Shown: in pieces, positions 1 through 5,822 of the stretch
How positions within the stretch are numbered: position 1 is the first letter of the stretch
How the letters are laid out: every line of letters starts with the position of its first letter
Assembly: GCA_018268695.1 (NCBI GenBank)
Contig: JAFDWD010000222.1
Span: 1 to 5,909 of the forward strand
DNA: 5,909 nucleotides
Source: Actinomycetota bacterium
GTDB lineage: Bacteria > Actinomycetota > Thermoleophilia > Solirubrobacterales > 70-9
Direction of reading: 5' to 3'
Made by a program: the position numbers and the translations under genes
The notes under the pieces: model-generated
What the model was told of the DNA's origin: nothing
The model's database searches: none
The model's input: the letters and a program-made list of their open reading frames with translations, nothing else

Positions 1-784
1 GATCGATGCCTTCGGGGCCGAGTCGACCGGGGAGTTCGTCGTCGACGGGGAGATCGTCGCCTTCGAGGGTTCCCGCACCAGCTTCGAGAAGCTGCAGGGC
101 CGCCTCGGCATCAGCGACCCGCGCCTCGCCCGGCTGACCGGCATCGAGGTCTTCATGTACGTCTTCGACATCCTCGAGCTGGAAGGTCGCGACGTCACCG
201 GCCTGCCGCTGCGGGAGCGCAAGGCCTTGCTCAGATCGAGCCTCGAATTCCACGGCCCCGTCCGCTACACGCAACACCGCAACGAGAAGGGGGAGAGGTA
301 CTTCCTCGAAGCGTGCGCGAAAGGCTGGGAGGGGCTGATCGCCAAGCGCGCCGACTCGACCTACCAGCACCGCCGCTCGAAGGACTGGCTGAAGGTGAAG
401 TGCTCCTTCGAGCAGGAGCTGGTGATCGGCGGCTTCACCCCGCCGAAAGGCTCACGGGAACGCTTCGGCGCCCTCCTGGTCGGCTACTACCAAGACGGCA
501 ACCTCCGTTACGCGGGGAAAGTCGGGACCGGGTTCGACCACCGCACGCTGGAGATGCTCGGCGACAAGATGGAGGTGCTCCGCCAGGCGAAGACGCCGTT
601 CACCGCCGGCTCCGGCCTGCCCCGCGACGCCACCTGCACCCGGCCCGAGCTGGTCGGCGAGTTCGGCTTCAGCGAATGGACCCGCGACGGCAAGCTCCGC
701 CACCCGCGCTACCTCGGGCTGCGCGACGACAAGGACGCCATCGAGGTCGTCCGCGAGAGCCCCACCGCCGACCCGCCGAACTGA
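1..784 (+). CDS. ATP-dependent DNA ligase, LigD-ligase type (5'-truncated by window edge)
   Basis: C-terminal 260 residues of an ATP-dependent DNA ligase that seals nicks or broken ends through a lysine-AMP intermediate. The reading frame is open from base 2 and the start lies outside the window. Visible in order: motif III (VDGEIVAFEG, bases 41-70) followed by SFEKLQGRLG; motif IIIa (YVFDILELEGRD, from 158); motif IV (EGLIAKR, 329-349); motif V (DWLKVK, 383-400) with both lysines; then an OB-fold region (ELVIGGFTPPKGSRERFGAL, followed by KVGTGFD) and the ending YLGLRDDKDAIEVVRE typical of LigD-family ligase domains. Motif I with the catalytic lysine should lie just upstream of the edge. It ends 29 bases before the LigD-like gene on the same strand, so the two are probably co-transcribed. 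The tail after EVVRE has no polymerase or phosphoesterase domain. Whether a domain precedes the ligase cannot be seen, so it could be a stand-alone ligase or the end of a longer protein. Confidence 0.93.
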   Translation, partial: IDAFGAESTGEFVVDGEIVAFEGSRTSFEKLQGRLGISDPRLARLTGIEVFMYVFDILELEGRDVTGLPLRERKALLRSSLEFHGPVRYTQHRNEKGERYFLEACAKGWEGLIAKRADSTYQHRRSKDWLKVKCSFEQELVIGGFTPPKGSRERFGALLVGYYQDGNLRYAGKVGTGFDHRTLEMLGDKMEVLRQAKTPFTAGSGLPRDATCTRPELVGEFGFSEWTRDGKLRHPRYLGLRDDKDAIEVVRESPTADPPN

Positions 785-813
785 GCCCGCCGAGGGGTAC
801 GGTCGGGGACGCG

Positions 814-2859
814 ATGGCGAAGCTGAGCGAGTACGAGCGCAAACGGGACTTCGGCAAGACCGCCGAGCCGGCGCCGCGCAAAGGCGTGAGGGGGCGGAAG
901 GGCGCGCCGCGCTTCGTCGTCCAGCAGCACGGCGCGACCCGCCTGCACTGGGACCTGCGCCTCGAGCATGAGGGCGTCGCCGTCTCCTGGGCGGTCCCGA
1001 ACGGCATTCCGCTGGACCCGAGCGAAAACCGCAAAGCCGACCACACCGAGGACCACCCGCTCGAGTACATGACCTTCGAGGGCGAGATCCCGAAGGGCGA
1101 GTACGGCGCCGGCACCGTGCGGATCTGGGACAGCGGCACCTACGGGCTGGAGAAGTGGCGCGACGACGAGATCATCTTCAGCTTTGAAGGCAGGCGGTTG
1201 CGCGGGCGCTACGTCCTCTTCCAGGCGGGCTCGGCGAAGGACTGGATGATCCACCGGATGGACCCGGCGGAGGGGAACCCGGATCCGTACCCCGACCCGC
1301 TGCCGCCGATGCTGGCCAACGAGAGCGTGCTGCCGAGCTCGACCCGCGGCTGGGCGGCGGAGCTCGCCTGGGGAGGCGTGCGGGCGATCGCGCGCTGCCG
1401 GCCGGGGCGCCTCGATCTCCGCGACGCCGAGCTCACCGACATCGGCGCGCGCTGGCCGGAGGTCCACCGCCTGACCCGCCAGATCGGCGCCCACGACGCG
1501 GTCCTCGACGGTGAGGTCGTCGTCTTCGACGAGGCCGGACGGCCCGACCGCGAGCGGCTCGCGCGCCGCGACAAGGACGGCTCGGGCAGCGCGATCCGGC
1601 GCCGCGCCCGGGAGAACCCGGCGACCTACGTCATCTTCGACCTGCTCTTCCTCGACGGCGAGGACCTGACCGACACGCCCTACAAGCGCCGCCGCGAGCT
1701 GCTCGCCGGCCTCGGGCTCGAAGGCGACGCGTGGCGCGTCCCGGCCAACGCGACGACCAAGATCAAGGAGCTGCTCGCGGCGAGCGCGGGCCAGGGGGTC
1801 GAGGGCCTGGTGGTGAAGAAGCAGTCGAGCCTCTACGCGCCGGGGCGGCGCACCGGCGAGTGGCTGCTCGTCCGCGGGGAGGGCGAGCACGACGGGGGAG
1901 AGGCGGCGGCCCGCCCCGGGATCACCGCGGCGGCCGAGCCGATCGACAAGAAGAAAGCCCGCCTCCTCGTCGCGGACCGCGAGCTCACCGTCTCCAACCT
2001 CACCAAGGTCCTCTATCCCGCCGTCGGCTTCACCAAGGGCGACCTGATCGACGCCTACGCCGACTTCGCCGAGGTCCTGCTGCCCCACCTGCGCGGCCGG
2101 CCGGTGACGCTGAAGCGCTACCCCGACGGGGTCGACGGCAAGTTCTTCTACGAGAAGCGCAGCCCCAAACATCGTCCCGACTGGGTGGCGACGGCGCGGA
2201 TCTGGTCCGAGAGCCACAAGGCGGAGATCGACTACACCCTGATCGAAGACCTGCCGACCCTCGTCTGGTCGGCCAACCTGGCGAACATCGAGCTGCACAC
2301 CTCGCTCGCCCGCGTCGGCAATCTCGACCGCCCCGACTCGATGGTCTTCGACCTCGATCCGGGCGCCCCCGCCGACGTCGTCGACTGCGCTCGCGTCGCC
2401 TTGCGCCTGCGCGCCTTCTTCGCCCAGCTCGGCCTCGACAGCTACGCGAAGACCTCCGGCTCGAAGGGCATCCACCTCCACGTGCCGCTGGGTGGCACCG
2501 CCACCTTCGACGAGTCGCGGCCCTTCGCCAAGGCCGTCGCCGAGACCTTCGCGGCCCGCTTCCCGGACGAGGTCGTCTCCCGCCAGGCGAAGACCAGTCG
2601 CACCGGCCGCGTCCTCATCGACTGGAGCCAGAACGACCGCCACAAGACGACCGCCTGCGTCTACTCGATCCGCGCCAGGGAACGCCCGACCGCCTCGACG
2701 CCGCTCGAATGGGAGGAGGTCGAGGCCGCCGCCGAGTCCGGTGACGCCGACTCCCTCGTCTTCACCGTCGACGACCTGCGCGCAAGGATCGCTGCAAAAG
2801 GCGACCTCTACGCCCCGCTCCTGAGCCAAAAACAGAACCTGCCGGACGTTTCCGTCTGA
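814..2859 (+). CDS. ligD: LigD-like NHEJ protein: 3'-phosphoesterase / degenerate ligase domain / primase-polymerase
   Basis: 681-residue end-processing protein of bacterial non-homologous end joining. The phosphoesterase domain is about residues 1-150: R11-D12, E18, H39 and H45-x-D47-x-R49 in QQHGATRLHWDLRLE, R73, and H81-P-L-E-Y85. These match, with constant spacing, the residues I recall as essential in Pseudomonas LigD, so it should be active. A ligase-like domain spans about 163-355. It keeps motif III (DGEVVVFD, 232-239), IIIa (VIFDLLFLDG, 273-282) and IV (EGLVVKK, 330-336), but motif I is ELAWGGVR (183-190), with Ala185 for the catalytic lysine and Gly187 for aspartate, and motif V is WLLVR without its usual lysines. 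No OB fold follows; an Ala/Glu/Lys-rich linker leads to the polymerase (about 388-681) with FDLDP (D513, D515), TSGSKGIHLHVPL (547-559) and LIDWSQN (D603). Full PE-Lig-Pol proteins have about 840 residues, so the shortening is internal. ATG 814 is chosen because KLSEYERKRDF is the family start and no other start codon lies between the upstream stop and 814. Confidence 0.93.
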   Translation: MAKLSEYERKRDFGKTAEPAPRKGVRGRKGAPRFVVQQHGATRLHWDLRLEHEGVAVSWAVPNGIPLDPSENRKADHTEDHPLEYMTFEGEIPKGEYGAGTVRIWDSGTYGLEKWRDDEIIFSFEGRRLRGRYVLFQAGSAKDWMIHRMDPAEGNPDPYPDPLPPMLANESVLPSSTRGWAAELAWGGVRAIARCRPGRLDLRDAELTDIGARWPEVHRLTRQIGAHDAVLDGEVVVFDEAGRPDRERLARRDKDGSGSAIRRRARENPATYVIFDLLFLDGEDLTDTPYKRRRELLAGLGLEGDAWRVPANATTKIKELLAASAGQGVEGLVVKKQSSLYAPGRRTGEWLLVRGEGEHDGGEAAARPGITAAAEPIDKKKARLLVADRELTVSNLTKVLYPAVGFTKGDLIDAYADFAEVLLPHLRGRPVTLKRYPDGVDGKFFYEKRSPKHRPDWVATARIWSESHKAEIDYTLIEDLPTLVWSANLANIELHTSLARVGNLDRPDSMVFDLDPGAPADVVDCARVALRLRAFFAQLGLDSYAKTSGSKGIHLHVPLGGTATFDESRPFAKAVAETFAARFPDEVVSRQAKTSRTGRVLIDWSQNDRHKTTACVYSIRARERPTASTPLEWEEVEAAAESGDADSLVFTVDDLRARIAAKGDLYAPLLSQKQNLPDVSV

Positions 2860-2866
2860 CGCCATC

Positions 2867-2881
2867 GGGACCATCCGTCCC
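2867..2881 (+). repeat. Short inverted repeat abutting the start of the small Cys protein gene
   Basis: GGGAC-CATCC-GTCCC, a perfect 5-bp stem with a 5-base loop, ends directly at the ATG at 2882. It occupies the place where a ribosome binding site would be expected, and no purine-rich Shine-Dalgarno sequence sits at normal spacing (the nearest is GGGA, 11 bases away, inside the stem). In GC-rich DNA such a stem can arise by chance. A role in translation initiation or in attenuation after the ligD stop is inference. Confidence 0.3.
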
Positions 2882-3097
2882 ATGTTCCAGGTCGAACTCG
2901 TGTGCTCGGATCCGCGCTGCGACGCGGAGGTGACGCTCTTCGTCGACGAGCCGGCGGAGGCCGAGGCGGTCGCCTGCGAGTGTGGGCACGGCCTGGTCGA
3001 GGTCCGGGTCGAGGGTTTCGAGCCCGTCTACGCCGCCGAGGGTGAAGTGATCGAGCTCCGGCCCGAGCGGCCCGAGCCCCTCCGCATCGCCGTTTAG
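2882..3097 (+). CDS. Small cysteine-containing hypothetical protein, possible zinc ribbon
   Basis: 71-residue protein that I do not recognise as a named family. Four cysteines form two pairs: C8-x4-C13 (CSDPRC) and C32-x-C34 followed by G35-H36 (CECGHG). The 18-residue gap between pairs and the knuckle-like CxCGH suggest a small zinc-ribbon or rubredoxin-like metal site, with His36 a possible alternative ligand. The spacings are not the classical CxxC. The rest is strongly acidic (many Glu, several Asp) with short alternating hydrophobic stretches (VELVC, VEVRVEG) that would suit beta strands. There is no signal peptide or membrane segment, so it should be cytoplasmic. It starts 22 bases after the ligD stop on the same strand and may be read through from that operon, though no good ribosome binding site precedes it. 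Coding is supported by G/C at most third codon positions and the clustered cysteines. Function is unknown. Confidence 0.72.
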   Translation: MFQVELVCSDPRCDAEVTLFVDEPAEAEAVACECGHGLVEVRVEGFEPVYAAEGEVIELRPERPEPLRIAV

Positions 3098-3171: not shown

Positions 3172-4044
3172 ATGGATTTGAAAGCACCTCTACGCCGTTT
3201 CGACGAGTTCCAGCAGAAGCGGCCCGCGCTGGCGGTGCCGCTGGCGATCGTCAAGAAGTTCGGCGACGACGAAGGCGGCAGCATGGTCTCGCTGATCGCC
3301 TATCGGGCCTTCTTCTCGCTCTTCCCGCTGCTGCTGCTGATGACGACGATCCTCGGCTTCGTCCTGGCCGACAACGAAGACCTCCGCAAGGAAGTCGTGA
3401 ACTCGACCCTGTCTCAATTCCCGATCATCGGCAACCAGCTGAAGGGCGGTGAACTGACCGGATCGGGGGTGGCGCTCGCGGTCGGGATCGTCGGCTCGGT
3501 CCTGGCCGGGATGGGCGTGGTGCTGGAGACCGAGAGCACCTTCAACCGCTGCTGGGGCGTGCCGAAATCGGGCGAGCGAGGATTCGTCGGCTCGCGTCTG
3601 CGGGCGATCCTCCTGCTCGTCGTGCTCGGTGGCCTGGCGGTCGTCTCGACCGTGATCGGCGGCCTCGCGGCGGGCGGCGCGAGCTTTCTCGGCGCCGACG
3701 GCAAGATCGCCGGGCTCGCGATCGCCACCGTGCTGAACCTCTTCGTCTTCGGCGCCGTCTTCCGCCTGCTCACCGCCGACACCGTCCAGACCCGGGCGCT
3801 GATCCCCGGCGTCGTCGTCGCGACGATCGGCTGGGAGATCCTGCAGGTGGCGGGCGGCTGGTACATCTCCCACGAGGTGAAGAACGCCTCCGCCGTCTAC
3901 GGCACCTTCGCCCTGGTCATCGGCCTGCTCGCCTGGATCCACCTCGGCGCGATGTTCGTCGTCCTCGGCGCGGAGACGAACGTCGTCCGCACCCGCAAGC
4001 TCTGGCCGCGCGCGATGTTCGGTGCGCCGGAAGCGAGTACCTGA
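3172..4044 (+). CDS. YihY/BrkB-family inner-membrane protein
   Basis: 290-residue polytopic membrane protein of the YihY/BrkB (formerly 'ribonuclease BN') family. Family marks: a first membrane segment starting IAYRAFFSLFPLLLL (42-56); the short motif FNRCWGVP (124-131) after the second segment; and the ending YGTFALVIGLLAWIHLGAMF (243-262) followed by VVLGAETN (263-270), the counterpart of the usual W...LLGAE.N. Six hydrophobic segments lie at about 41-66, 98-118, 145-172, 179-200, 209-230 and 245-266. The length matches the family (about 280-320). There is no cleavable signal peptide; the first 40 residues are charged and cytoplasmic. The family's biochemical role is unsettled: the old RNase BN assignment was withdrawn, and transport or envelope functions are only suggested. 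It has its own AAGGG ribosome binding site, follows the preceding gene after 74 bases, and converges with the regulator gene 15 bases downstream. Confidence 0.9.
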   Translation: MDLKAPLRRFDEFQQKRPALAVPLAIVKKFGDDEGGSMVSLIAYRAFFSLFPLLLLMTTILGFVLADNEDLRKEVVNSTLSQFPIIGNQLKGGELTGSGVALAVGIVGSVLAGMGVVLETESTFNRCWGVPKSGERGFVGSRLRAILLLVVLGGLAVVSTVIGGLAAGGASFLGADGKIAGLAIATVLNLFVFGAVFRLLTADTVQTRALIPGVVVATIGWEILQVAGGWYISHEVKNASAVYGTFALVIGLLAWIHLGAMFVVLGAETNVVRTRKLWPRAMFGAPEAST

Positions 4045-4059
4045 CGCGCTCGGACGTCC

Positions 4060-4641
4060 TCACCGCGCCGGCGACTCGAACGCGGCCAACCCGGTGACCA
4101 CCGGGATGCCGTTCTTGCCTCCGAGGCGGTCGCGGCTCTGGGCGGCGACCTCCATCAGCTCGCGCAACGCCCGGTCGAGGATCTCGGCGGTCTCCCGCCA
4201 GCCCTGCTCGTCGACGGTCATCGGCATCCAGTTCAGGGTGGTGTCCTCGCGCGGGTCGATCGTGTCGGCGTCGAGGGCGGCGCCGACCTTGCCGACGAAG
4301 GTGCGGAGCGCTTCGCTCGTCACCCCGCCGCGCACCGACAGCGGCGCCTTGCGCCAATCCTGGTGGCCGATGAACGAGCGCGGGCGGGCGGTGTAGAAGT
4401 GCTCGATCGTGCCGCGCTTCGGCCGGGTGCGGACCTGTTCGATGCAGCCGACGTCGAGGAGCGCGTTGGCGTGGTAGCTCACCACCCCGAGGCTCTCCCT
4501 GAACTTCTTGGCCAGTTCGGTCGGGCTCGCCGAGCGTCCCTGCAGCGCTTCGAGGATCTGCACGCGCATCGGGTGCGAGAGCGCCCGCACAAGGTTCTGG
4601 TCGATCGTGTCCCCGTCCGGGGCCCTGCTCTCCTCCGGCAT
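4060..4641 (-). CDS. ArsR-type winged-helix transcriptional regulator
   Basis: 193-residue DNA-binding regulator. The winged helix covers about residues 12-88: ALSHPMRVQILEAL (20-33) is the classic ArsR helix 1-2 signature, SPTELAKKF (39-47) the first helix of the HTH, GVVSYHANAL (52-61) the recognition helix, and GCIEQVRTRPKRGTIEHFYTA (65-85) the wing. The remaining 100 residues form a helical C-terminal half (including TVDEQGWRETAEILDRALREL) as in larger actinobacterial ArsR-like proteins, possibly for dimerisation or ligand sensing. The ELCVCDL metal motif is absent and Cys66 is the only cysteine, so metal sensing is unlikely. The start at 4641 is preceded by GGATGG at 7-base spacing. An in-frame ATG further upstream (4779) would run into the divergent gene and adds no recognisable domain. 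It stops 15 bases from the convergent yihY-like gene. It is divergent from the DUF72 gene, so it may control that gene and itself. Confidence 0.88.
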   Translation of the reverse strand: MPEESRAPDGDTIDQNLVRALSHPMRVQILEALQGRSASPTELAKKFRESLGVVSYHANALLDVGCIEQVRTRPKRGTIEHFYTARPRSFIGHQDWRKAPLSVRGGVTSEALRTFVGKVGAALDADTIDPREDTTLNWMPMTVDEQGWRETAEILDRALRELMEVAAQSRDRLGGKNGIPVVTGLAAFESPAR

Positions 4642-4701
4642 AGGTTCGCCATCCCAGCGGTTGACGGCGGCGCTCTCAACCCAATTATTTGAGCCACTTG
4701 G

Positions 4702-4715
4702 TAACACCGGTGGTA
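4702..4715. promoter_or_regulatory. Candidate operator palindrome
   Basis: TAACACCGGTGGTA is a 14-bp inverted repeat with a perfect 8-bp core (CACCGGTG) and TA/TA ends. Only the third pair from the ends mismatches (A against G). Size, symmetry and position midway between divergent genes suit a dimeric winged-helix protein such as the adjacent ArsR-type regulator. The assignment to that regulator is inference. Confidence 0.45.
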
Positions 4716-4748
4716 GGCGTTTAGGGGATGTTGCGGGGTGGGACTTTT

Positions 4749-4754
4749 TATACA
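4749..4754 (+). promoter_or_regulatory. Candidate -10 element of the DUF72 gene
   Basis: TATACA within ACTTTTTATACACGG, 8 bases before the ATG at 4763. No good -35 box stands 16-18 bases upstream (TTGCGG at 4731 is only 12 bases away). The short distance to ATG would give a leaderless or very short 5' leader, and the sequence before the ATG (CGGAACTC) has only a weak GGA as ribosome binding site. Confidence 0.35.
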
Positions 4755-4762
4755 CGGAACTC

Positions 4763-5530
4763 ATGGGGAAAACGCACAAAACTGTGAAAAGAGATGTGCG
4801 GGTCGGCTGCTCGGGATGGTCGTACCGCGACTGGCGCGAGGGCCTCTACAAAGGTGTGCCGCAACGCCGCTGGCTCGAGCGCTACGCGGAGGAGTTCGAC
4901 ACGGTGGAGGTCAACGCGACCTTCTACCGGCTCCCCCGGGAGAAGACCGTCGCCGGGTGGGTCGACCAGACGCCGCCAGGCTTCGCCTTCGCGGTCAAGG
5001 GCAGCCGTTACCTCACCCACATCCGCCGCCTCCGTGACACCGATACCGGGCTGCGGCGATTCTGGGAGCCGTTGGCGCCGCTGCGCGAGGCCGGCCGGCT
5101 CGGCCCCGTGCTCTGGCAGCTGCCGGAGAGCTTCGAGCGCGAGGACGGCGCCCTCGACGAGTTCCTCGCCGCCCTGCCGCCCGCCCGGCACTGCTTCGAG
5201 TTCCGCCACCCGAGCTGGTTCACCGCGCCGGTCCACCGGATCCTCGAGCGCCACGAAGCCTCGCTCGTCATCCCCGACGACGCCCGCCGCGAGCTGCCCG
5301 AGCCGAAGCCGGTCGGCCCGCTCGCCTACCTGCGCCTGCACTACGGAAGGCACGGGCGACGGGGCAACTACTCGGAGGCCGAGCTTGACGCCTGGCGCAG
5401 GCGGATCGGCGGCTGGCGGAGCCGGCGCGAGGTCTTCGTCTACCTGAACAACGACCGGGAGGGATTCGCCCCGGCGAACGCCGCCTACCTTGCTCGCGGT
5501 TTATCGACGTCCGCGGCGCGGGTAACTTAA
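4763..5530 (+). CDS. DUF72 (YecE-like) family protein
   Basis: 255-residue protein of the DUF72/YecE family, a TIM-barrel fold of unestablished biochemical function. Family motifs are spread along the whole chain: VGCSGWSYRDWREGLY (14-29), FDTVEVNATFYRLP (45-58), FAFAVKGSRYLTH (about 85-97), GPVLWQLPESF (114-124), CFEFRHPSWF (144-153), YLRLHYGR (189-196) and VFVYLNNDREGFAPANA (224-240). Length and motif order are normal, so it should be an intact cytoplasmic protein. The frame is open further upstream, but the family begins near VRVGCSGW. ATG 4763 gives a natural 12-residue lead, with GTG 4784 the only close alternative. The first 40 bases are unusually A-rich (ATGGGGAAAACGCACAAAAC), which often favours translation initiation. 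It is divergent from the ArsR-type regulator and followed within 4 bases by the next plus-strand gene. Confidence 0.92.
   Translation: MGKTHKTVKRDVRVGCSGWSYRDWREGLYKGVPQRRWLERYAEEFDTVEVNATFYRLPREKTVAGWVDQTPPGFAFAVKGSRYLTHIRRLRDTDTGLRRFWEPLAPLREAGRLGPVLWQLPESFEREDGALDEFLAALPPARHCFEFRHPSWFTAPVHRILERHEASLVIPDDARRELPEPKPVGPLAYLRLHYGRHGRRGNYSEAELDAWRRRIGGWRSRREVFVYLNNDREGFAPANAAYLARGLSTSAARVT
5523..5528 (+). promoter_or_regulatory. Candidate -10 element placing transcription start at the ATG of the next gene
   Basis: TAACTT fits the actinobacterial TANNNT -10 pattern. It ends 6 bases before the ATG at 5535, so transcription would begin at or next to the A of ATG (leaderless mRNA). It overlaps the DUF72 stop codon. 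The only Shine-Dalgarno-like bases (AAGG, 5529-5532) are 2 bases from the ATG, too close to work normally. No strong -35 box is seen; TTATCG at 5501 is the best-placed hexamer. Confidence 0.3.
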
Positions 5531-5534
5531 GGCC

Positions 5535-5822
5535 ATGTCAGTCACAACCAAACTTGCCCGTAAGGCGGTCAAGACGACCGCGAAGCACACTGCCATGGGC
5601 GCCGCCTCGAGGGTCACCCGCAAGCCGTTCCGCTCAATCACCCTGCTGGCGATCGGCGCCGGCCTCGGCGGGATCGTCGGCTGGCTGATCGGCCGCTCCG
5701 GCGGCGATCAACCCTTCGAGCCGGTGGCTCCCGCGGGCCCGACCAGCGTCGCCACCACCCCCGCCGGCCAGGCCGGCGACAACTCGACCGAGCACGCCTC
5801 GGAGACTGGAGCCATTTCGTGA
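5535..5822 (+). CDS. Small single-membrane-segment protein, unknown function
   Basis: 95-residue protein not belonging to a family I can name. It has a basic N-terminus (residues 1-33, with K/R at 6, 9, 10, 13, 17, 26, 29, 30, 33), then one hydrophobic segment ITLLAIGAGLGGIVGWLIG (35-53) rich in small-residue GxxxG-like spacings that favour helix packing. A polar Pro/Ala/Thr/Gly-rich tail of about 40 residues follows. The positive-inside rule puts the N-terminus in the cytoplasm and the tail outside. The segment begins late and no cleavage site is evident, so it looks like a membrane anchor, not a secreted protein. It starts 4 bases after the DUF72 stop and its own stop overlaps the next gene start. 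Products of this gene and the next are therefore likely made together, perhaps as a membrane pair. Confidence 0.8.
   Translation: MSVTTKLARKAVKTTAKHTAMGAASRVTRKPFRSITLLAIGAGLGGIVGWLIGRSGGDQPFEPVAPAGPTSVATTPAGQAGDNSTEHASETGAIS
5807..5811 (+). promoter_or_regulatory. Ribosome binding site deciding the GTG start at 5819
   Basis: TGGAG lies 7 bases before the GTG at 5819, within the end of the preceding gene. With the GTGA stop/start overlap it supports GTG 5819 as the true start and suggests translational coupling. Confidence 0.5.

What the first reader, a model, noticed from the sequence alone, without database searches (positions are those of the whole stretch)
1312..1878. Pseudo-ligase domain inside a LigD-type protein
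Between an intact phosphoesterase and an intact polymerase lies a nucleotidyltransferase fold whose catalytic lysine is Ala (residue 185) and whose motif I aspartate is Gly (187). ExKxDGxR has become ELAWGGVR. Motif V has also lost its lysines (WLLVR), and the SFxxLQ stretch after motif III has become DRERLARR. Motifs III, IIIa and IV remain readable, so the fold seems kept while chemistry is lost. A retained but dead ligase domain suggests a structural role, such as binding DNA, ATP, Ku or the separate ligase, or setting the distance between the two active domains.
Basis: partly seen in the sequence, partly recalled or inferred. Interest (0 to 1): 0.72.

Follow-up and report, generated by a model that had tools for sequence, protein, structure and literature searches.

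The report
Dead ligase domain kept in LigD
A bacterial DNA-break-repair protein carries a DNA-joining domain that has lost its catalytic residues but is still preserved by selection, and the same thing has happened several separate times in bacteria that own a second, apparently working joining enzyme, which suggests the dead domain now serves as a docking or positioning part.

Summary
Protein 814-2859 (681 aa) is PE – ligase-like NTase – Pol; the NTase has Ala185 for the catalytic Lys, Gly187 for the motif I Asp, no motif V lysines and no OB domain. It is no sequencing error: 0 of 120 listed family members (window included) have Lys185, whereas sister LigDs about 60% identical are intact. The domain is under purifying selection like its neighbours (omega 0.27 against PE 0.33, Pol 0.29) and is predicted to keep the ligase fold. 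Genomes with it have a separate, motif-intact LigD-type ligase: full-length in 4 of 5 in this genus, beside ku in 15 of 15 in another order, against 6 of 15 with intact proteins. Best reading: sealing moved to the separate ligase and the dead NTase stays as a docking or positioning module for PE, most likely towards Ku. The partner is inferred, not shown. Ten searches found no paper on it.

The parts
2..784 (+). separate LigD-type ATP-dependent DNA ligase, C-terminal 260 residues (part of the NTase and the OB domain); the N-terminus with motif I lies outside the window
   Evidence: PF01068 and PF04679; TIGR02779 224.4 bits against cut-off 227.75 although truncated; 95% identical to the G001 C309 gene, whose motif I is FERKLDGVR and motif V WLKVK
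814..2859 (+). LigD-type protein PE - pseudo-ligase NTase - Pol, 681 aa
   Evidence: start codon follows the upstream stop codon after 29 nt, operon-like
823..1263 (+). 3'-phosphoesterase (PE) domain, residues 4-150, conserved His/Asp/Arg residues present
   Evidence: TIGR02777 162.8 bits, above cut-off 144; H39, H45, D47, R49 in 109 of the 109 family members with letters there, 11 of 120 being gapped
1300..1875 (+). pseudo-ligase nucleotidyltransferase domain, residues 163-354, no OB domain after it
1360..1383 (+). degenerate motif I ELAWGGVR; A185 at 1366-1368 (Lys lost), G187 at 1372-1374 (Asp lost)
1501..1530 (+). motif III VLDGEVVVFD, kept (E234)
1540..1569 (+). RPDRERLARR in place of the SFxxLQ stretch
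1624..1659 (+). motif IIIa TYVIFDLLFLDG, kept
1798..1824 (+). motif IV VEGLVVKKQ; K335 invariant, E330 relaxed in the lineage
1861..1875 (+). degenerate motif V WLLVR (both lysines lost)
1882..1914 (+). low-confidence, probably flexible linker, residues 357-367
   Evidence: pLDDT under 50
1978..2808 (+). LigD Prim-Pol domain, residues 389-665

Best explanation
This is a LigD whose ligase domain has become a pseudo-ligase. Inferred history: an organism with LigD gained or kept a separate NHEJ ligase; selection on sealing by LigD's own domain lapsed; the OB domain was deleted and motif I Lys, motif Ia Arg and motif V lysines were lost; but the NTase core was kept because it does something other than sealing. 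Shown here: loss of the catalytic residues and OB, conservation under purifying selection, recurrence in at least five lineages, and a separate motif-intact ligase in most or all pseudo-ligase genomes looked at. Inferred: the protein cannot self-adenylate or seal; the separate ligase (here its own upstream neighbour) does the final step; the retained NTase core is a non-catalytic docking and positioning module that carries the PE domain (and, here, Pol) to the Ku-bound break. The likeliest partner is Ku, because the ligase domain of LigD binds Ku directly in published work, and because in the Pol-less PE-NTase proteins it is the only domain besides PE left to do the recruiting. My weights: dead domain 0.95; selected non-catalytic role 0.85; Ku docking as that role about 0.45.
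For: Lys185 absent in 120 of 120 listed family members (window included), Ala in 117. Sister LigDs in the same genus (G042, G047, G049) are intact, VEVKWDG[IV]R. OB and Lys lost together: among distinct NTase ORFs fused to PE in the loci then held, OB present 76 of 76 with Lys, OB absent 23 of 23 without. Purifying selection: omega PE/NTase/Pol 0.33/0.27/0.29 in 5 CDS of this lineage; PE/NTase 0.25/0.37 in 11 CDS of the second; intact LigDs 0.28/0.36/0.38 (7 CDS), 0.33/0.19/0.30 (4 CDS), 0.39/0.41/0.51 (the 3 sister CDS). At least five independent conversions: 5 changes, 5 forced by starred branches, 5-5 in bootstraps; all pseudo rows as one clade rejected, p-AU 1e-100, the two large groups as one clade 2e-9. 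Separate ligase: full-length in 4 of 5 pseudo genomes of this genus plus a 38-residue contig-edge match in the fifth; in the other order beside ku in 15 of 15 pseudo and 6 of 15 intact genomes. Of 27 separate-ligase loci checked, 27 show motif I Lys and motif IV, 26 show WxKxK of motif V. Ku in 10 of 10 and 30 of 30 genomes. Partner: mycobacterial Ku, also its core alone, directly binds the LigD ligase domain (PMC9638933, abstract and passages); the B. subtilis Ku C-terminal helix is predicted to pack on the ligase domain (PMC13201618, passages). Precedent: catalytically dead yeast Dnl4 still supports imprecise end joining, likely through another ligase (PMC3694833, abstract).
Against: No interaction with Ku was computed or measured. 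The published Ku data come from ligase domains that are active, of mycobacteria and Bacillus; which half (NTase or OB) binds I did not learn. In this lineage the Pol domain could recruit Ku by itself. The link between pseudo state and separate ligase is not significant once kinship is allowed for: 4 independent pairs, ligase the same way in 3.4 on average, the other way in 0.0, no difference in 0.6, median p 0.25. Six of 15 intact genomes also have the ku-side ligase, and G035 has an intact LigD plus a 58% identical separate ligase, so the extra ligase does not force decay. In G050 only a contig-edge fragment of the separate ligase was found. Two OB-less proteins (P0143, P0148) do have Lys at the motif I position.
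Confidence: 0.5

Rival explanations
1. Structural integration: the NTase core packs on the PE domain as one rigid unit and is kept because PE needs it for stability or to hold the DNA end in the PE active site; no outside partner is needed.
For: The Actinoplanes PE-NTase protein P0225 is predicted with pTM 0.85 and mean pLDDT 91.3 over both domains, high for two loosely joined domains; in the window protein the one segment of three or more residues with pLDDT under 50 is 357-367, between NTase and Pol. PE is the constant companion in all five lineages.
Against: Archaeal PE structures of 118-124 residues stand alone (3p4h, 3p43), and PE-only open frames of about 256 aa occur in genomes of this genus, so PE-type domains can exist without NTase. 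pTM is one number; no inter-domain error map was available and no intact PE-Lig was modelled as control.
Confidence: 0.25
2. Docking site for the separate ligase: the dead NTase binds or activates the separate ligase, bringing end-processing and sealing together.
For: Separate ligase gene directly upstream in G001, G003, G048 and in the window; a separate ligase in genomes of all five pseudo lineages.
Against: Not on the same contig as the pseudo gene in G002. The ligases paired with the two large groups are different clades (quick tree), so docking would have had to arise anew.
Confidence: 0.13
3. Non-covalent nucleotide or 5'-phosphate sensor: the emptied pocket still binds ATP/AMP or a 5'-phosphorylated or adenylated end and reports it to PE/Pol.
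For: R190 and K335 invariant in both groups (109 of 109 and 103 of 103), E234 invariant in group 1 (109 of 109).
Against: K185, R205, F246, K352 and K354 lost in 109 of 109 group 1 proteins and D187 in 107; in group 2 E234 is Val in 45 of 103, F275 is Tyr in 36 and Val in 14. Invariant residues may serve the fold only.
Confidence: 0.09
4. Slow decay: a passive remnant not yet lost.
For: Catalytic sites vary freely in group 2 (88 different nine-residue motif I strings in 120 proteins).
Against: Omega 0.27-0.37, like active domains; at least five independent cases in which OB went and the NTase core stayed.
Confidence: 0.04

Closest known systems
LigD of PE-Lig-Pol order (Pseudomonas type, recalled; here intact LigDs of Solirubrobacterales, Thermoleophilaceae and Patulibacter)
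   Same: same order PE-NTase-Pol, 50-62% identity to the window protein in 24 aligned examples; Ku in the genomes of two of them (G009, G010)
   Different: ligase domain without motif I Lys and Asp, motif V lysines and OB; sealing presumably by a separate ligase
Ligase domain of mycobacterial LigD (1vs0, 6nhx, 6nhz)
   Different: the window domain lacks the nucleophile and the OB domain
Split NHEJ systems (archaeal NHEJ with separate proteins: PMC4797286, search listing only, otherwise recalled; 'nonconventional NHEJ' of PMC7719229, passages)
   Same: ligase encoded apart from PE/Pol
   Different: here a dead ligase domain stays on the PE protein; no such case appeared in the passages I read
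Catalytically dead yeast Dnl4 (K466A), laboratory mutant (PMC3694833, abstract)
   Same: ligase protein without adenylation still supports end joining, likely with another ligase
   Different: an engineered mutant, not a natural conserved family
PE-NTase proteins of Actinoplanes, Phytohabitans and Krasilnikovia, named 'DNA polymerase ligase N-terminal domain-containing protein', ATP-dependent DNA ligase or LigD by their sources
   Same: PE fused to an OB-less NTase without the motif I Lys
   Different: independent origin, no Pol domain; in the 13 genomes of this group that were checked the separate ligase lies beside ku

Membership tests
ATP-dependent DNA ligase, catalytically competent (PF01068 + PF04679) | NTase fold / PF01068 match | tested here: met
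ATP-dependent DNA ligase, catalytically competent (PF01068 + PF04679) | motif I Lys (KxDG) | tested here: not met
   A185, G187; 0 of 120 family members with Lys
ATP-dependent DNA ligase, catalytically competent (PF01068 + PF04679) | motif V lysines | tested here: not met
   WLLVR; 0 of 109 with Lys at 352 or 354
ATP-dependent DNA ligase, catalytically competent (PF01068 + PF04679) | OB domain (PF04679) | tested here: not met
   no PF04679 match in the protein at E up to 1; the upstream ORF has it
ATP-dependent DNA ligase, catalytically competent (PF01068 + PF04679) | self-adenylation and nick sealing | not testable with these tools
   needs an assay
LigD (three active domains) | PE domain with active-site residues | tested here: met
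   TIGR02777 162.8 against 144; residues kept
LigD (three active domains) | Pol domain | tested here: met
   TIGR02778 264 against 214.7; Pol catalytic residues not examined one by one
LigD (three active domains) | active ligase domain / full-length model cut-off | tested here: not met
   TIGR02779 122.9 against 227.75; TIGR02776 342.8 against 373.2; PRK09632 620.7 against 989
LigD (three active domains) | Ku in the same genome | tested here: inconclusive
   window's own genome not held; Ku found in G001, G002, G003 and, beside Pol, in G048 and G050
NHEJ_ligase_lig (separate ligase; relative P0247 of window 2-784) | TIGR02779 cut-off | tested here: met
   267.5 against 227.75; the window copy itself is truncated, 224.4

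The most novel reading that the evidence does not exclude
A recurrent class of natural pseudo-ligases: at least five times in Actinomycetota the LigD ligase domain has been stripped of its OB domain and chemistry and turned into a dedicated docking adaptor that brings the 3'-phosphoesterase (with or without Pol) to Ku-bound breaks, while a separate ligase seals. Ligation and recruitment, which are fused in ordinary LigD, have thus been separated by evolution.
Probability: 0.42. Interest if true: 0.75.

Novelty: new variant of a known kind. Interest (0 to 1): 0.62.

Why it matters
How the domains of LigD are coordinated, and what the ligase domain contributes apart from sealing, is open; the review PMC8656161 (passages) says that the arrangement of the domains in whole LigD is unknown. 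Natural proteins in which the sealing residues are gone but the NTase core is conserved are a ready-made separation of functions: whatever they still do (Ku binding, PE positioning) is the non-catalytic role. They also mean that a protein annotated LigD in these actinomycetes cannot be counted as a ligase when NHEJ capacity is predicted from genomes. Members from named Actinoplanes, Phytohabitans and Krasilnikovia (the last two Micromonosporaceae) make it testable.

Tried and rejected
Sequencing error or recent decay: rejected by 120 family members and by omega. Replacement lysine: no newly conserved Lys in the domain (the lineage is shallow, so that list says little else). Gain of positive charge for DNA binding: none; mean net charge of the NTase is +1.5 in group 1 (109 rows), -2.4 in group 2 (103), +2.0 in 43 intact LigDs, which speaks mildly against a stronger DNA-binding role. 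A single origin of all pseudo-ligases: rejected. Origin of the separate ligase by duplication of this LigD's own ligase domain: not favoured; the separate ligases form their own clade (100*), outside the starred clade that holds this LigD lineage and its intact sisters (quick tree). Strict exclusion of intact LigD and separate ligase: holds in the 12 genomes of the genus but not in the family (G035). Covariation between domains and prediction of complexes were not tried. Literature: ten searches; judged by titles and beginnings of abstracts none listed a paper about an inactive ligase domain in LigD. Five papers were opened, none in full (PMC7719229, PMC8656161, PMC9638933, PMC13201618 by passages; PMC3694833 by abstract and outline). 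The library holds open-licence PMC papers only.

Criteria set after seeing data: 'separate ligase' means a ligase not fused to PE and at least 44% identical to the L061 ligase; ku-ligase gaps are between matched stretches, and the adjacency was read off the coordinates (gaps recomputed). The presence/absence table was typed by hand; 32 of 54 tree rows were used, rows with unknown state left out, G050 and G054 among them. One search left out NTase hits under 150 residues and identical sequences. Searches used 109 of 120 group 1 proteins (over 600 aa) and 103 of 120 group 2 proteins (330-440 aa; P0143, P0148 and P0235 taken out). The lists show the best 120 of 2502, 1332 and 7997 hits. The matches are a cut list. 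Genomes reached by the genome search are of unstated completeness, so 'not found' is not 'absent'.

Full report
WHAT IS THERE. The window (5909 nt, GC-rich; origin not told; closest relatives are MAGs labelled Actinomycetota and Solirubrobacterales) begins inside a ligase gene (2-784, C-terminal 260 aa) and continues, 29 nt after its stop codon, into an ORF of 681 aa (814-2859) on the same strand. That protein is PE (residues 4-150), a ligase-type NTase (163-354) and a Prim-Pol domain (389-665). The NTase reads ELAWGGVR at motif I (183-190), where intact LigDs typically read E[IV]KWDGVR; motif V reads WLLVR; no OB domain (PF04679) follows.

NOT AN ERROR. In the best 120 listed of 2502 hits (the window itself among them) residue 185 is Ala in 117 and Gly, Thr and Asp once each, never Lys; residue 187 is Gly in 116 and Asp in 2. 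E183 and R190 are kept in 120 of 120, E234 in 119, D276 and K335 in 120. PE residues H39, H45, D47 and R49 are kept in the 109 rows with letters there. No lysine is newly conserved in the domain, so no other lysine has evidently taken over.

SELECTION. Nei-Gojobori omega, mean over pairs: this lineage (5 CDS, 10 pairs) PE 0.33, NTase 0.27, Pol 0.29; second pseudo group (11 CDS, 55 pairs) PE 0.25, NTase 0.37; intact Solirubrobacteraceae-type LigDs (7 CDS) 0.28, 0.36, 0.38; Patulibacter-type (4 CDS) 0.33, 0.19, 0.30; the intact sisters of this lineage (3 CDS) 0.39, 0.41, 0.51. The dead domain is thus about as constrained as working ones. GC-biased third positions may depress dS, so the comparison between domains matters more than the absolute values.

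THE GENUS. Of 12 genomes that the tool puts in the genus of G001, five carry the pseudo-ligase LigD (G001, G002, G003, G048, G050), three an intact PE-Lig-Pol LigD about 60% identical (G042, G047, G049), and in four no full PE-NTase-Pol gene was found (G043-G046). The separate ligase (homologue of window 2-784, at least 69% identical) is in G001, G002, G003, G046, G048, G043 and G044, and was not found in the three intact ones or in G045; G050 shows only a 38-residue match at a contig edge. It sits directly upstream of the pseudo gene in G001, G003 and G048 and on another contig in G002. In the wider family G035 has both an intact LigD and a 58% identical separate ligase. All five pseudo genomes also have a ku-pol gene pair elsewhere. 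Compared by eye, five of the 120 proteins, the window included, share a contig length with a separate ligase, among them P0005 and P0247 on a 3.8 Mb contig.

THE SAME THING ELSEWHERE. Loci L052-L054 (Micromonosporaceae), L056 (Streptosporangiales) and L060 (an unplaced actinobacterial MAG) carry PE-NTase proteins without OB and without the motif I Lys. A search with L053 listed 120 proteins, 99 of them 350-378 aa long, with Lys at that column in only 3 (P0143, P0148, and P0235, which has an OB domain); some are named for Actinoplanes, Phytohabitans and Krasilnikovia. Among distinct NTase ORFs in the loci then held, PE-fused ones with OB had the Lys in 76 of 76, those without OB in 0 of 23, and non-PE ligases in 25 of 25. 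P0143 and P0148, OB-less but with Lys, show that the rule is not absolute.

INDEPENDENT ORIGINS. On a PE+NTase tree with the motif columns removed (54 rows, 310 columns, careful search) the pseudo state needs 5 changes; starred branches alone force 5, and bootstraps give 5 to 5. The larger quick tree (124 rows) gives 6, with 4 forced. All pseudo rows as one clade: p-AU 1e-100; the two large groups as one clade: 2e-9; all pseudo rows outside this lineage as one clade: 2.7e-4. Intact proteins lie around the cases (the nearest kin of L056 is unresolved), so losses are inferred rather than gains.

THE SEPARATE LIGASE. In 30 genomes of the order of G006, 15 pseudo and 15 intact by the loci, Ku is found in 30 of 30. 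A separate LigD-type ligase lies 67-141 nt from ku, divergently, in 15 of 15 pseudo genomes, and 39-146 nt from ku in 6 of 15 intact ones (Fisher p 0.0007, which ignores kinship). With kinship allowed for, four independent pairs exist on starred branches; the ligase goes the same way in 3.4 on average and the other way in none; median p 0.25. Of 27 separate-ligase loci checked, 27 show motif I Lys and motif IV and 26 show WxKxK of motif V. So the extra ligase looks necessary but not sufficient for the conversion; the contrast is suggestive, not significant.

WHICH RESIDUES. Of 109 longer proteins of this lineage none has Lys185, Arg205, Phe246, Lys352 or Lys354, each of which is present in 43 of 43 intact LigDs; Asp187 is left in 2, and E330 is Glu in 61 and Asp in 43. 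E183, W186, G188, R190, D232, G233, E234, D276, W307 and K335 are retained. The roles of these motifs in AMP and DNA contact are recalled from the ligase literature. Loss of the nucleophile, motif Ia and motif V argues against covalent chemistry and ordinary nick binding; retained R190 and K335 leave room for non-covalent phosphate binding or may serve the fold.

MECHANISM. Five independent retentions of an NTase core after loss of OB and Lys, while PE-only frames exist in genomes of this genus, argue that the core does something useful for PE. Published work gives a candidate: mycobacterial Ku binds the LigD ligase domain directly, an interaction described there as likely not associated with ligation, and the Ku core alone binds it too (PMC9638933, abstract and 12 passages); the B. 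subtilis Ku minimal C-terminus is predicted to pack on the LigD ligase domain (PMC13201618, 6 passages). In the Pol-less PE-NTase proteins the NTase is the only domain besides PE. I therefore favour Ku docking, with PE integration second (pTM 0.85 for the two-domain Actinoplanes protein), ligase docking third and nucleotide sensing fourth. None is shown.

NOVELTY. Split NHEJ and LigDs lacking a domain are known (PMC7719229 and PMC8656161, passages). I found no description of a conserved inactive ligase domain in LigD in ten searches of open-licence papers, judged by titles and beginnings of abstracts; closed-access literature was not searched. I class it as a new variant of a known kind.

Noticed in passing
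window 3172-4044 (+): Membrane protein of the BrkB/YihY family (PF03631, 134.7 bits).
   Followed up: no
window 4060-4779 (-) and 4763-5527 (+): Divergent pair: an HTH regulator of ArsR type (PF12840, PF01022) and a DUF72 protein (PF01904, 232.8 bits).
   Followed up: no
window 2882-3097 (+): 71-aa protein with two cysteine pairs (CSDPRC, CEC) that looks like a small zinc-binding protein; no Pfam match over its cut-off.
   Followed up: no
window 5535-5822 (+): 95-aa protein with a glycine-rich hydrophobic stretch; no Pfam match at E up to 0.01.
   Followed up: no
window 709-2883 (-): Open frame of 724 aa antisense to the whole LigD gene; probably a shadow of GC-rich codon use, not tested.
   Followed up: no
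L105, L108, L109, L110, L111; L112, L149, L153, L154: Genomes of this genus have a second, stand-alone Pol beside ku, and several a PE-only open frame of about 256 aa (357 aa in L154) elsewhere, so Pol and PE are duplicated while ligation is separate.
   Followed up: partly
P0143, P0148: Two OB-less PE-NTase proteins with Lys at the motif I position (ELKWDGER, ELKWEGER) but a degenerate motif V; reversion or an early state is unclear.
   Followed up: partly
G125 C15, G200 C109: In two intact genomes ku lies beside the PE-Lig gene itself instead of beside a separate ligase.
   Followed up: no
L003 about 5953-7976: The 70-9 MAG copy of the pseudo-LigD has a run of N inside the NTase domain and reads as two frames; probably an assembly gap.
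   Followed up: partly
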